Assembly: GCF_000264945.2 (NCBI RefSeq)
Contig: NZ_CP013070.1
Coordinates: 3,304,501 to 3,368,500, forward strand
Source: Sphingobium indicum B90A
GTDB lineage: Bacteria > Pseudomonadota > Alphaproteobacteria > Sphingomonadales > Sphingomonadaceae
Direction: 5' to 3'
Length of the DNA: 64,000 nucleotides
How positions within the stretch are numbered: the stretch's first letter is position 1; each line of letters begins with the position of its first letter. Below are positions 3,776 through 10,504 of the stretch, one piece after another. Both the position numbers and the translations under genes were made by a program. The notes under the pieces were generated by a model. It was not told where the DNA came from, searched no databases, and saw nothing but the letters and a program-made list of their open reading frames with translations.

Positions 3776-4606
3776 TCATACTCCTTCCGCCAGAACGCGG
3801 TCGTTGAACAGGTTGATGATGGCGGCCGCCGCTTCCTCGATGGAGCGGCGGGTCATGTCGATCACCGGCCAGCCATTGTCCGCGAACATGCGGCGGGCGA
3901 AGGCCAGTTCCTCCTGCACCTTGTCCAGATCGACATAGCTGGTTTCGGGCGCCTGGTTGAGCGAGAGCAGGCGATTTCGGCGGATCTGCACCAGCCGTTC
4001 CGGGCTGACCGTCAGCCCCACCACCATCGGATGCTTCAACGAATAGAGGGCGGGCGGCGGCGGCGACTGGATCACCAGCGGAATATTGGCGGTCTTGTAC
4101 CCGCGATTGGCGAGATAGATGGAGGTCGGCGTCTTTGAGGCGCGGGAGACGCCCGCCAGCACGATGTCCGCCTCCTCCCAATTTTCATGGCCGACGCCGT
4201 CGTCATGGGCGATGGTGAACTGGATAGCCTCGATCCGGGCGAAATAGGCTTCGTCCAGGATATGCTTGCGGCCGGGGCGGTTGCGGGTTTCCTGGCCCAA
4301 TATGTTGGAGAGCGCGTCGGTCACGCTGTCCAGCGCCGCGACATGCGGCAGGCCGAGCGCCCGGCAGCGCGTCTCCAGCCGCCGCCTGAGCTGGTGGTTG
4401 GACAGGGTGAAAAGCACCAGTCCCGGATTGGCGGCGATCTCCTCCATGATGCGGTCGAGATGGATGTCGGACCGGACCATCGGCCAGAAATGGCGCACCG
4501 CCTCCACATTCTCGAACGCGCCGATGGCCGCCTTGGCGATATTCTCCAGCGTCTCGCCAGTGGAGTCCGAAAGCAGGTGGAGATGGATGCGCGACATGAA
4601 GAACAT
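3776..4606 (-). CDS. ppsR: Pyruvate,phosphate dikinase / PEP synthase regulatory protein (PSRP, DUF299)
   Basis: A 276-residue bifunctional serine/threonine kinase and pyrophosphorylase that switches PEP synthase or pyruvate,phosphate dikinase on and off. HLHLLSDSTGETLENIA at the N-terminus and the P-loop-like GVSRASKTPTSIYLA are hallmarks of the family. Two in-frame ATGs (4606 and 4597) are possible; the second (MSRIHLHLL) is closer to the usual start and neither has a strong ribosome binding site. It is the first gene to the left of the probable origin, the position held by the homologous gene in Caulobacter, and is probably the first gene of the maf-aroE-coaE-dnaQ transcript. Confidence 0.93.
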   Translation of the reverse strand: MFFMSRIHLHLLSDSTGETLENIAKAAIGAFENVEAVRHFWPMVRSDIHLDRIMEEIAANPGLVLFTLSNHQLRRRLETRCRALGLPHVAALDSVTDALSNILGQETRNRPGRKHILDEAYFARIEAIQFTIAHDDGVGHENWEEADIVLAGVSRASKTPTSIYLANRGYKTANIPLVIQSPPPPALYSLKHPMVVGLTVSPERLVQIRRNRLLSLNQAPETSYVDLDKVQEELAFARRMFADNGWPVIDMTRRSIEEAAAAIINLFNDRVLAEGV

Positions 4607-4882
4607 CTCTGTGGGGAGGCTGTGGATAAAGCAAGGGATAGGTTGCGGGGAAAATCAGGCGTTTGTCGCCCTCCCCGATTCCGGGAATCTTGTCCACAGC
4701 CCGCCAACAGATGGAAATTAAAATCCACAGCCTGTGGATAAGGGGGATAAGCGGACTGACTCGGACCGGAATCGGCGACTCCAGGGAGTCAAGTTGTTGG
4801 CAAATCCGGGCACAGCGCATAAACCCCGCTGCCAACCGCCCTACTATCTCCATCATCCTTCTGAATCTAAATAAGAGAGTTT
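4607..4882. other. oriC: Probable chromosomal replication origin (oriC) between ppsR and hemE
   Basis: This gene-free gap holds two perfect DnaA boxes, both reading TGTGGATAA (4621-4629 and 4733-4741), a one-mismatch box TTGTCCACA (4690-4698) and a weaker AAATCCACA (4721-4729). The last two face the second perfect box, giving a tight group over about 50 bp. GANTC, the CcrM methylation site of alphaproteobacteria, occurs seven times between 4677 and 4867 (4677, 4685, 4758, 4769, 4777, 4786, 4863), where less than one would be expected by chance. AT-rich stretches at about 4711-4726 and 4861-4882 are candidates for unwinding. In Caulobacter oriC lies between hemE and the ppsR homologue, the same arrangement as here. 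The gap must also hold the divergent promoters for ppsR and hemE. Confidence 0.85.
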
Positions 4883-5944
4883 ATGACGGGACCAGATGCC
4901 GGCCTTTCGAACGGCCCGATACCCAAGCCGTTGCTTTCGGTCCTGAAAGGCGCGCTGCCTGCCGTGCCGCCCATGTGGCTGATGCGCCAGGCGGGGCGCT
5001 ATCTGCCCGAATATCGCGCCTTGCGGGCGGAAAAGGGCGGATTCCTGGAACTGGTCTATGACAGCGCGGCGGCGGCGGAAGTGACCGTGCAGCCGCTGCG
5101 CCGTTTCGGTTTTGACGGCGCGATCCTGTTTTCCGACATTTTGATCGTGCCTTATGCGATGGGGCAGGATCTGTGGTTCGAGGCCGGGGAAGGCCCGCGT
5201 CTGGCGCCGATCCTGGCGGAGACTGACCTGTCGACCCTGAAACCCGATTTCAGCCGCTATGAGGCGGTCTATGAGACGGTCCGGCAGGTGAAGGCCGCAT
5301 TGGACCCGCAAGTCACCTTCCTGGGCTTTGCGGGCAGTCCCTGGACCATCGCCACCTATATGGTCGTGGGTCAGGGCAGCAAGGACCAGGGCGCGGCCCG
5401 CCGCATGGCCTACAGCCAACCCAAAAAATTCGGCGCGATCATCGATGCGATCATCGATGCGACGGTGGTCTATCTGTCCGGCCAGATCGAGGCGGGGGTC
5501 GAGGCCGTGCAGCTTTTCGACAGTTGGGCGGGCAGCCTGGCCCCGCTGGAGTTCGAGCGCTGGGTGATCCGGCCCAACAGGCGGATCGTGGAGAAGCTGA
5601 AGGCGATCCACCCGGATATTCCAGTGATCGGCTTTCCCAAGGGCGCGGGCGCGAAGCTGGCGGATTATGCGGCGGGGACCGGGGTCGACGCGGTCGGCGT
5701 GGACGAGACGGTCGATCCGCACTGGGCCAACCGCGTGTTGCCGCAGGGGTTGCCGGTGCAGGGGAATCTCGATCCGCTGGCGCTGATCGCCGGGGGTAAG
5801 GCGGTGGAAGAGGCCGTCGACAATATCCGCGCCGCCTTTGCCGGGCGGCCCCATATCTTCAACCTGGGGCATGGGATATTGCCCGACACCCCCATTGATC
5901 ATGTCGAAGCGCTGCTTAGCTATGTGCGGGCAGCGGGAGACTGA
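4883..5944 (+). CDS. hemE: Uroporphyrinogen decarboxylase
   Basis: A 353-residue HemE that decarboxylates the four acetate side chains of uroporphyrinogen III to give coproporphyrinogen III in heme synthesis. The signature PPMWLMRQAGRYLPEYRALR lies near the N-terminus with the substrate-binding arginines, and GFAGSPWTIATYM follows in the middle of the protein. The start at 4883 has AAGAGAG six bases upstream. It is followed after 2 bp by hemJ, so heme genes are co-transcribed. It marks the right edge of the probable origin. Confidence 0.97.
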   Translation: MTGPDAGLSNGPIPKPLLSVLKGALPAVPPMWLMRQAGRYLPEYRALRAEKGGFLELVYDSAAAAEVTVQPLRRFGFDGAILFSDILIVPYAMGQDLWFEAGEGPRLAPILAETDLSTLKPDFSRYEAVYETVRQVKAALDPQVTFLGFAGSPWTIATYMVVGQGSKDQGAARRMAYSQPKKFGAIIDAIIDATVVYLSGQIEAGVEAVQLFDSWAGSLAPLEFERWVIRPNRRIVEKLKAIHPDIPVIGFPKGAGAKLADYAAGTGVDAVGVDETVDPHWANRVLPQGLPVQGNLDPLALIAGGKAVEEAVDNIRAAFAGRPHIFNLGHGILPDTPIDHVEALLSYVRAAGD

Positions 5945-7435: not shown

Positions 7436-8242
7436 ATGGCGAACGCCCAAACGCACCATATCGTCTTCGCCAATGAGAAGGGCGGGACCGGCAAGTCGAC
7501 GACCGCCGTGCATACGGCCATCGCGCTGACGGTATTGGGTCATCGCGTCGGCATGATCGACCTCGACCCGCGGCAGCGCACCATCACCCGCTATATGGAG
7601 AATCGGGCGGAGACCGCGCGCCGCCGCGGCATCGACCTGCCGACTCCGGACTTCGCGGTGTTCAAGGGCGACAGCGTCGAGGCGCTGGAGGAACAGGCGG
7701 CCGCCATGGCCGAAGGCAAGGATTTCCTGGTCATCGACACGCCCGGTCGCGACGATGATTATGCCCGCCACATGGCCGCCCGCGCCAACACGCTGGTGAC
7801 GCCGATGAACGACAGTTTCGTCGATTTCGACCTGATCGGGCAGGTGGACGCGGAAACATTCAAGGTTAAGCGCCTGTCCTTCTATTCCGAACTGATCTTC
7901 GAGGCGCGCAAGACCCGCGCCAAGGCGGACGGCGTCACCATCGACTGGGTGGTGCTGCGCAACCGCGTCCAGCATCATGACGCCCGCAACAAGAAGCGGG
8001 TGGGCGACGCGCTGATGGAGCTTTCCCGCCGCGTCGGATTCCGCGTGATTCCGGGCCTTTCGGAGCGAGTGATCTTCCGCGAGCTTTTTCCGTCGGGCCT
8101 GACCCTGCTGGACAAGGGGCATCTGGGCGAACTGGGCGTCAGCCATATCGCCGCGCGGCAGGAACTGCGCGAGATGGTGTCGGGCCTTGCCCTGCCCTCG
8201 CGGGTCGAGGCCGCGCCGCTGGACATGCTCGGCGCGGCCTGA
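7436..8242 (+). CDS. mipZ: Cell-division regulator MipZ (ParA-family ATPase)
   Basis: A 268-residue ParA/MinD-type ATPase matching alphaproteobacterial MipZ, which forms gradients from the pole-tethered ParB-origin complex and inhibits FtsZ near the poles. The deviant Walker A is NEKGGTGKST (residues 13-22). DLDPRQRT, VTPMNDSFVDFDLIG, DWVVLRNR and the ELFPSGLTLLD segment near the C-terminus are characteristic of MipZ rather than of plasmid ParA. A GAAGG lies just upstream of the ATG. The downstream J-domain gene overlaps its stop codon. It lies about 2.8 kb from the probable origin. No parAB genes are in the window. Confidence 0.93.
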   Translation: MANAQTHHIVFANEKGGTGKSTTAVHTAIALTVLGHRVGMIDLDPRQRTITRYMENRAETARRRGIDLPTPDFAVFKGDSVEALEEQAAAMAEGKDFLVIDTPGRDDDYARHMAARANTLVTPMNDSFVDFDLIGQVDAETFKVKRLSFYSELIFEARKTRAKADGVTIDWVVLRNRVQHHDARNKKRVGDALMELSRRVGFRVIPGLSERVIFRELFPSGLTLLDKGHLGELGVSHIAARQELREMVSGLALPSRVEAAPLDMLGAA

Positions 8243-10164: not shown

Positions 10165-10307
10165 ATATAAGGGGGCAGTTGCAGAAAACGCAACCAGGGG
10201 TCAGCTTTTCGCATTTGCGAAATGCGCCGCTGCACCGCAAAAGGAAAAGGCCTTTCAGGCATCCTCTCCTAAAACTTTCAAGCCGTCCTCCGGGGCGGCT
10301 TTTTTTT
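10165..10307 (+). ncRNA. Candidate small RNA with intrinsic terminator
   Basis: Within the 396-bp gap after the phosphohexomutase lies a series of three stem-loops ending in a terminator: a 5-bp GTTGC/GCAAC stem (10178-10194), a perfect palindrome TTTCGCATTTGCGAAA (10207-10222), and the terminator at 10280-10307. A TATAAG that could serve as a -10 box lies at about 10166, so the exact 5' end is a guess. No known family is recognised. It might simply be the 3' UTR and terminator of the upstream gene. Confidence 0.35.
10280..10307 (+). terminator. Intrinsic terminator
   Basis: AAGCCG and CGGCTT form a GC-rich stem with a 10-base loop followed by an eight-base T-run, a classical Rho-independent terminator for plus-strand transcription. 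It ends either the phosphohexomutase transcript or a separate small RNA. The remaining sequence up to the porin gene (10308-10504) is AT-rich and probably holds the porin promoter; no further gene is seen. Confidence 0.85.
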
Positions 10308-10504
10308 GCCTTTTTGCCCTCTCTTTTTTCGCTTCCTGCCGTAGCGTCGTTTCGCATTTTCGGCGATCCAGCGCGTGAAATCCCCGTAAATTAGGGCTTT
10401 TCGAACGATAATTTAACCATATTGCTAATAGGGCGCGGCTTTAAGGGCATCATTTTTCCGGTGAAAGCCATTTGCCGCAAACACGTTTGAAGAGAGGTTT
10501 CATC

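What the first reader, a model, noticed from the sequence alone, without database searches (positions are those of the whole stretch)
4607..4882. Probable chromosomal oriC with DnaA boxes and a GANTC cluster
Two perfect DnaA boxes (4621-4629, 4733-4741), a one-mismatch box (4690-4698) and a weak one (4721-4729) lie in a 276-bp gap between ppsR and hemE, together with seven GANTC sites within 4677-4867. The gene order around it (dnaQ-coaE-aroE-maf-ppsR // hemE) matches the Caulobacter origin. This implies CcrM-controlled, DnaA-driven initiation and makes base 1 of the chromosome definable.
Basis: partly seen in the sequence, partly recalled or inferred. Interest (0 to 1): 0.75.

Follow-up and report, generated by a model that had tools for sequence, protein, structure and literature searches.

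The report
Sphingobium chromosomal replication origin
The 276-base gap between the ppsR and hemE genes is very probably where this Sphingobium-type bacterium starts copying its chromosome; such origins are known in its relatives, but its dense, evolutionarily maintained cluster of GANTC methylation sites is unusual and its role is untested.

Summary
The gap is the hemE/COG1806 origin known from Caulobacter and predicted for most Sphingomonadaceae; divergent hemE/ppsR flank it in 107 of 110 sphingomonad loci (the other 3 end at contig edges). Three parS-like sites, the genome's only ones at up to 2 mismatches, lie 22-30 kb away. 'CcrM-controlled' is not shown, and in Caulobacter CcrM is dispensable for initiation control (PMC3973325). 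New here: GANTC is 3.6-3.8 times over expectation in sphingomonad origins against 1.5 in other Alphaproteobacteria, and the density persists although sites turn over. The genome's only other exact DnaA-box pair, far from the origin, precedes a conserved structured RNA gene without Rfam match. Origin call: about 0.92. Class: new member of a known kind.

The parts
4607..4882 (.). Origin gap (oriC) between divergent ppsR and hemE
   Evidence: divergent hemE/ppsR in 107 of 110 sphingomonad loci (3 end at contig edges); AT 46% against 33% for the window
4621..4629 (-). DnaA box, exact TTATCCACA
   Evidence: identical in 42 of 44 aligned Sphingobium-set gaps, 2 gapped
4653..4665 (+). IHF-consensus match (WATCAN5WTR)
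   Evidence: one of 5 in the 64-kb window, but only 8 of 107 sphingomonad gaps have any such match, so not conserved
4690..4698 (+). DnaA box, one mismatch (TTGTCCACA); exact in 26 of 44 relatives
4721..4729 (+). Weak DnaA box (AAATCCACA), left half of an inverted pair with 4733-4741
   Evidence: CCACA end conserved; TCATCCACA in 22 of 44
4733..4741 (-). DnaA box, exact TTATCCACA, right half of the inverted pair
   Evidence: exact in 27 of 44, TGTGGATAG or TGTGGGTAA in 16, TGTGAGTAA in 1
4743..4750 (-). GGGGATAA, possible further weak DnaA-type site beside the inverted pair
   Evidence: mostly conserved columns; by resemblance only
4677..4867 (.). Seven GANTC (CcrM-type) sites: 4677, 4685, 4758, 4769, 4777, 4786, 4863
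   Evidence: kept in 9, 33, 44, 14, 7, 43 and 36 of 44 Sphingobium-set gaps
4784..4836 (.). Conserved block GGGAGTCAAGTTGTTGGCAAATCC...GCATAAACCCCGCTGCCAAC with inverted repeat TTGGCA...TGCCAA; candidate hemE promoter or operator (inference)
   Evidence: TTGGCA in 90 of 107 gaps, TTGGCA-N20-40-TGCCAA in 50 of 107; the sigma-70 consensus scan found no promoter
4847..4882 (.). AT-rich stretch before hemE, holding the least stable 25 bp of the gap; candidate unwinding element or hemE leader
   Evidence: 64-79% AT in 20-bp windows across the Sphingobium set
3776..4606 (-). ppsR / COG1806 kinase-pyrophosphorylase, left flank
   Evidence: PF03618 E 5.8e-92
4883..5944 (+). hemE, uroporphyrinogen decarboxylase, right flank
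   Evidence: PF01208 E 4.7e-113

Best explanation
The gap is the DnaA-dependent origin of the chromosome, of the Alphaproteobacterial hemE/COG1806 type. DnaA binds the strong box at 4621, the box at 4690 and the inverted pair 4721/4733, forms a filament and melts a neighbouring AT-rich stretch (4709-4727 or 4847-4882; position inferred), where helicase is loaded. Transcription of hemE leaves the right half of the origin (inferred). The origin lies close to parS-like sites and mipZ, which would segregate it. Shown by sequence: position, boxes, conservation, GANTC density, parS-like sites nearby. Inferred: DnaA binding, unwinding, firing. The GANTC sites are probable CcrM substrates, hemimethylated after firing; whether that mark controls initiation, hemE/ppsR transcription or neither is open.
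For: Sites verified and non-random. Divergent hemE/ppsR in 107 of 110 sphingomonad loci and hemE beside ppsR in 92 of 109 ppsR loci drawn across the class, two of them sphingomonads. Box 4621 unchanged in 42 of 44. Exactly three parS-like sites (up to 2 mismatches) in the whole genome, all 22-30 kb from the gap, none for the reversed pattern. The dnaA locus (3.5 kb) has no box with at most one mismatch. KOPS-type octamers put the terminus near 1.3 Mb, which leaves arms of about 1.7 and 2.0 Mb from this gap. In relative G050 the gap gives the best KOPS score of the six positions compared, 138, equal to the grid maximum (sampling resolves this to about 0.1 Mb). Literature: PMC4741004 (passages) places oriC beside hemE in Sphingopyxis and, via DoriC, most Sphingomonadaceae; PMC1914354 (passages) gives the Caulobacter and Rickettsia precedent.
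Against: Cumulative GC skew from 52 pieces (28% of the chromosome) has its minimum at ~1.92 Mb and maximum at ~1.18 Mb; the gap shows only a local sign change. KOPS does not resolve the origin: score 115 at the gap, 133 for 3.16-3.20 Mb, 111 for 2.7 Mb, 107 for the dnaA region, 95 for position 0, 81 for 1.92 Mb. G050's GC-skew minimum is 0.39 Mb from its gap. 36 of 107 sphingomonad gaps have no exact box. 17 of 109 class loci show no hemE beside ppsR, two of them on short pieces. A place at C1:1.0926-1.0929 Mb also has three boxes with at most one mismatch within 400 bp, two of them in tandem. The dif consensus tried found nothing. No experiment.
Confidence: 0.92

Rival explanations
1. The GANTC cluster is a methylation timer: after firing, the hemimethylated origin binds DnaA poorly or is sequestered until CcrM re-methylates it late in the cycle, an Alphaproteobacterial counterpart of Dam/SeqA.
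For: GANTC 3.8x over expectation in 107 sphingomonad gaps (3.6x in 80 after removing near-copies), while seven control palindromes of the same letters give 0.37-2.11x; density 16.5/kb against 1.2-3.8/kb in flanks of 79 loci; sites turn over while number is kept; CcrM-type and GcrA genes present; a similar idea is proposed for Agrobacterium ori2 (PMC11514494, passages).
Against: In Caulobacter CcrM is not required for initiation control (PMC3973325, passages). Class-wide, enrichment is the same with (1.51x, 66 genomes) and without (1.52x, 12 genomes) a detected RAMA protein. One control palindrome, AGNCT, is itself 2.1x over expectation in sphingomonads. No SeqA-like reader was sought.
Confidence: 0.2
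2. The GANTC sites act in transcription: GcrA/CcrM-dependent promoters of hemE and ppsR (and perhaps an origin RNA like Caulobacter CcnA) lie in the gap, and replication only uses the DnaA boxes.
For: The two best-kept sites are 4786 (43 of 44), inside the left end of the conserved block 4784-4836 that leads towards hemE, and 4758 (44 of 44), 22 bp before it; GcrA present; in Caulobacter hemE transcription matters for replication and the ncRNA CcnA is encoded in the origin (PMC8959179, passages).
Against: No promoter was found by the sigma-70 scan; no transcript data; some sphingomonad gaps hold 8-10 GANTC spread over the whole gap.
Confidence: 0.4
3. The gap is an ordinary divergent promoter region with DnaA-regulated genes and the origin is elsewhere, for example near the GC-skew minimum at 1.9-2.0 Mb where dnaA also lies.
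For: Sampled GC-skew minimum ~1.92 Mb; dnaA at 2.02 Mb; KOPS score there (107) is only slightly below the gap's (115).
Against: No box with at most one mismatch in 3.5 kb around dnaA; arms would be about 0.6-0.7 and 2.9-3.0 Mb given the KOPS terminus near 1.3 Mb; parS-like sites are all beside the gap; dnaA is reported not to be conserved near ori in Sphingomonadales (PMC8116508, passages).
Confidence: 0.06

Closest known systems
Caulobacter crescentus Cori (between hemE and CC0001/COG1806)
   Same: Same flanking genes, several DnaA boxes, AT-richer than the genome, GANTC sites reported in the origin (PMC1914354 and PMC3973325, passages)
   Different: No TTAA-N7-TTAA CtrA site here (Cori has five, PMC1914354); the IHF match at 4653 is not conserved; gap 276 bp against 404 bp; GANTC density was not compared with Cori itself, only with 90 unnamed class gaps, where it is much lower on average
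Sphingopyxis oriC at hemE (S. granuli TFA and relatives)
   Same: Same family and gene neighbourhood, conserved DnaA boxes (PMC4741004, passages)
   Different: That paper reports boxes and a DUE; the word GANTC does not occur in its main text (count 0). Its alignment is in a supplement not read
E. coli oriC with Dam/SeqA (recalled)
   Same: A DnaA-box origin dense in sites of a solitary adenine methyltransferase
   Different: GATC/Dam there, GANTC/CcrM here; no sequestration protein shown; works-like only

Membership tests
Alphaproteobacterial hemE/COG1806 chromosomal origin | Intergenic gap between divergent hemE and COG1806 (ppsR) | tested here: met
Alphaproteobacterial hemE/COG1806 chromosomal origin | Cluster of DnaA boxes beyond chance | tested here: met
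Alphaproteobacterial hemE/COG1806 chromosomal origin | AT content above genome average | tested here: met
   46% in the gap, 33% in the window
Alphaproteobacterial hemE/COG1806 chromosomal origin | par locus / parS close by | tested here: met
   three parS-like sites 22-30 kb away; consensus recalled; parAB genes not searched
Alphaproteobacterial hemE/COG1806 chromosomal origin | Cumulative GC-skew minimum at the locus | tested here: not met
   minimum ~1.92 Mb in a 28% sample. Not defining on its own: PMC1914354 (passages) calls GC skew insufficient in several Alphaproteobacteria
Alphaproteobacterial hemE/COG1806 chromosomal origin | Replication starts here | not testable with these tools
   needs marker frequency or origin-plasmid assay
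CtrA-regulated Cori type | CtrA sites TTAA-N7-TTAA in the origin | tested here: not met
   none in the window gap; exact site in 4 of 107 sphingomonad gaps
CtrA-regulated Cori type | IHF site | tested here: inconclusive
   one consensus match at 4653; any such match in only 8 of 107 gaps
Methylation-gated origin (Dam/SeqA-like) | Over-representation of the methyltransferase site in the origin | tested here: met
Methylation-gated origin (Dam/SeqA-like) | Solitary methyltransferase present | tested here: inconclusive
   one RAMA-domain protein, 397-aa frame; that it is a GANTC methyltransferase without a partner nuclease was not checked
Methylation-gated origin (Dam/SeqA-like) | Initiation changed by methylation state or by a reader protein | not testable with these tools
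   needs ccrM depletion in a sphingomonad; negative in Caulobacter (PMC3973325, passages)

The most novel reading that the evidence does not exclude
Sphingomonads couple DnaA and CcrM at two far-apart places of the chromosome: an origin selected for GANTC density, and an RNA gene in the far half of the chromosome whose upstream region carries DnaA boxes and GANTC sites. The RNA would be a cell-cycle signal read out when the fork reaches that region, and hemimethylation of the origin would time re-initiation.
Probability: 0.2. Interest if true: 0.7.

Novelty: new member of a known kind. Interest (0 to 1): 0.35.

Why it matters
It fixes base 1 for this genome on grounds better than GC skew, which here points elsewhere. 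It also gives a sharp test object: sphingomonad origins keep many GANTC sites while individual sites come and go, which suggests selection for the methylation mark itself, in a class where the model organism says CcrM does not matter for initiation control. The side result, a conserved structured RNA with DnaA boxes and GANTC upstream, may be a new cell-cycle RNA.

Tried and rejected
GC skew as the arbiter: jagged in the sample, minimum at ~1.92 Mb, so it argues against the locus but does not settle the call. KOPS octamers: good for the terminus, poor for the origin in this genome. dif by a gamma-proteobacterial consensus with up to 3 mismatches: no hit. CcrM presence as explanation of GANTC enrichment across the class: no difference, 1.51x against 1.52x, but only 12 RAMA-negative genomes, some perhaps incomplete, and one counted positive (G074) is below the family cut-off. 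CtrA regulation of the origin: no supporting sites. My first IHF pattern had a wrong spacer and found nothing; the corrected one found 4653. Tandem DnaA boxes at 1.508 Mb as a second origin: set aside because they sit upstream of an RNA gene with an intrinsic terminator. The box cluster at C1:1092632-1092950 was only looked at: one GANTC within 400 bp, no further test.

Full report
1. What was checked. The gap 4607-4882 is real and as described: two exact DnaA boxes, one with one mismatch, one weak, and seven GANTC sites. Dinucleotide shuffles of the gap never reach these counts (0 of 2000). The window is C1:3304501-3368500 of a 3.65-Mb contig in a 4-contig genome, so the gap is at C1:3309107-3309382. 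The window's 64 kb as a whole avoid GANTC (100 found, 273.5 expected), which makes the cluster stand out more. By GANTC density the gap ranks first of 246 crudely called intergenic stretches in a 1.02-Mb sample, 28% of the contig. In that sample no 280-bp stretch has as many DnaA boxes (3 with at most one mismatch); within 400 bp one place ties, C1:1092632-1092950.

2. Neighbours. Pfam supports ppsR (PF03618), hemE (PF01208), Maf, AroE, CoaE, a DnaQ-type exonuclease, MipZ at 7436-8242 and UPF0093 after hemE. Three parS-like sites, the only ones in the genome at up to 2 mismatches, lie 22-30 kb away. dnaA lies at 2.02 Mb; PMC8116508 (passages) reports that dnaA is not conserved near ori in Sphingomonadales and that parAB is near ori in almost all genomes analysed.

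3. Conservation. Of 110 sphingomonad loci (the window's own included), 107 keep divergent hemE/ppsR with a gap of median 284 bp; the other three end at contig edges. At least one exact box is in 71 of 107, two or more in 57 of 107. In 44 distinct gaps of the Sphingobium set, box 4621 is kept in 42, GANTC 4758 in 44 and GANTC 4786 in 43. A block at about 4784-4836 with the inverted repeat TTGGCA...TGCCAA is about as conserved as the boxes and may hold the hemE promoter; a sigma-70 scan found none. An exact CtrA site is absent here and present in 4 of 107. One IHF-consensus match (4653) is not conserved.

4. GANTC in context. Across the 107 gaps GANTC is 3.82x over a dinucleotide expectation; seven palindromes of the same letters give 0.37-2.11x (AGNCT at 2.11 is the highest, so a moderate excess of another palindrome also occurs). 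After removing near-copies (80 gaps) it is 3.59x. In 79 loci the gap has 16.5 GANTC per kb, the flanking 500-bp bins 1.2-3.8. In an alignment of 77 gaps, 184 of 369 GANTC lie in columns shared by under 30% of rows, against 26-79 such instances for the other palindromes: sites turn over but number is kept. In 90 non-sphingomonad class gaps 33 reach twice a single-base expectation, against 93 of 107 in sphingomonads. Among the 78 of these tested for a RAMA protein, positives (66) give 1.51x and negatives (12) 1.52x, so enrichment does not follow CcrM presence in this small test.

5. Whole-chromosome evidence. The curve changes sign many times, including minus to plus at the gap. KOPS octamers (321 sampled) switch at about 1.3 Mb, giving a terminus there; the origin is not resolved (115 at the gap, best 133 at 3.16-3.20 Mb, 107 at dnaA, 81 at 1.92 Mb). 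In G050, a one-contig relative sampled in 40 pieces, KOPS scores best at its hemE/ppsR gap among six positions (138; +99/-16 and +7/-62 on the two arms), while its GC-skew minimum is 0.39 Mb away.

6. Literature. PMC4741004 (passages): oriC at hemE in Sphingopyxis and most Sphingomonadaceae of DoriC, with conserved DnaA boxes and a DUE. PMC1914354 (passages): Caulobacter and Rickettsia origins between hemE and COG1806; GC skew insufficient in several species. PMC3973325 (passages): several GANTC in the Caulobacter origin, CcrM not required for initiation control, though cells over-expressing CcrM accumulate extra chromosomes. PMC11514494 (passages): hemimethylation proposed to hold back ori2 of Agrobacterium. 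Searches that joined GANTC or CcrM with sphingomonads and origins listed no paper that, by title, abstract start or passages read, reports the enrichment; supplements were not read and most subscription papers are not held.

7. A second conserved DnaA-box place. The only other exact pair in the genome is a tandem TGTGGATAA-N-TGTGGATAA at C1:1508178-1508196. Allowing one mismatch it occurs once in each of 38 of 61 same-genus genomes (own included), and the reversed control in none. Twenty fetched copies and the own one fall in one group linked by more than 400 bp of alignable DNA. In nine genomes chosen because contig length was known it lies at 0.77-0.99 of the half-chromosome from the gap, treating the contig as the circle; seven others with both on contig C1 were not computed, and two of those are only 1.0-1.1 Mb apart by the places, so terminus proximity is a tendency, not a rule. 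Beside it, on the minus strand, is a stretch of about 370 nt (ends inferred) that folds better than all 100 shuffles (z -5.6), ends in a hairpin with a T-rich tail, and shows covariation (18 of 64 pairs changed on both sides, 0 of 500 shuffles as high; 17 of 21 sequences used; the structure was predicted from the same alignment, and related sequences can beat such shuffles). Rfam has no match at gathering threshold and only two sub-threshold ones at E up to 10. GANTC lies 51-52 bp from the boxes, on the RNA side, in all 19 copies the script parsed; two were not parsed. A model of its 3' end finds 21 of 149 family genomes, the 20 others weakly and by the terminator region only; 14 of these 20 have a same-strand DnaA box 250-600 bp upstream, 15 such boxes against 3 same-strand ones elsewhere, but opposite-strand boxes also gather there, 6 against 5 (window chosen after the fact). 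Beyond the genus, homology of the RNA body is therefore not shown.

8. Verdict. An ordinary but correctly found chromosomal origin, in a GANTC-rich form that mostly lacks CtrA sites and is typical of sphingomonads. The control claim (CcrM) is inference and has a counter-example in the model organism.

Noticed in passing
L010:7745-8196 (own chromosome C1:1507745-1508196, RNA on the minus strand; outside the window): Tandem exact DnaA boxes and two GANTC sites upstream of a conserved structured RNA of about 370 nt with an intrinsic terminator and no Rfam match; box pair found in 38 of 61 genus genomes.
   Followed up: partly
L007:12632-12950 (own chromosome C1:1092632-1092950; outside the window): Two tandem DnaA boxes (TTATCCACT, TTATCCACA) and a third (TTTTCCACA) 300 bp away, the only place in the sample that ties the gap's three boxes within 400 bp.
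   Followed up: partly
window 10243-10314 (+): suhB/mmgR sRNA match (RF00519, 44.7 bits) about 5 kb from the origin.
   Followed up: no
window 7436-8242 (+): mipZ (PF09140) 2.6 kb from the origin gap.
   Followed up: no
own chromosome C1, about 1.98-2.18 Mb and elsewhere in the sample: GC skew changes sign many times; in pieces at 1.98-2.18 Mb it is positive while KOPS polarity is negative, as if segments had been inverted within replichores.
   Followed up: partly
L119: One relative has a 943-bp hemE/ppsR gap instead of about 284 bp.
   Followed up: no
window 4784-4836: Conserved inverted repeat TTGGCA...TGCCAA in 50 of 107 sphingomonad gaps; function unknown.
   Followed up: partly
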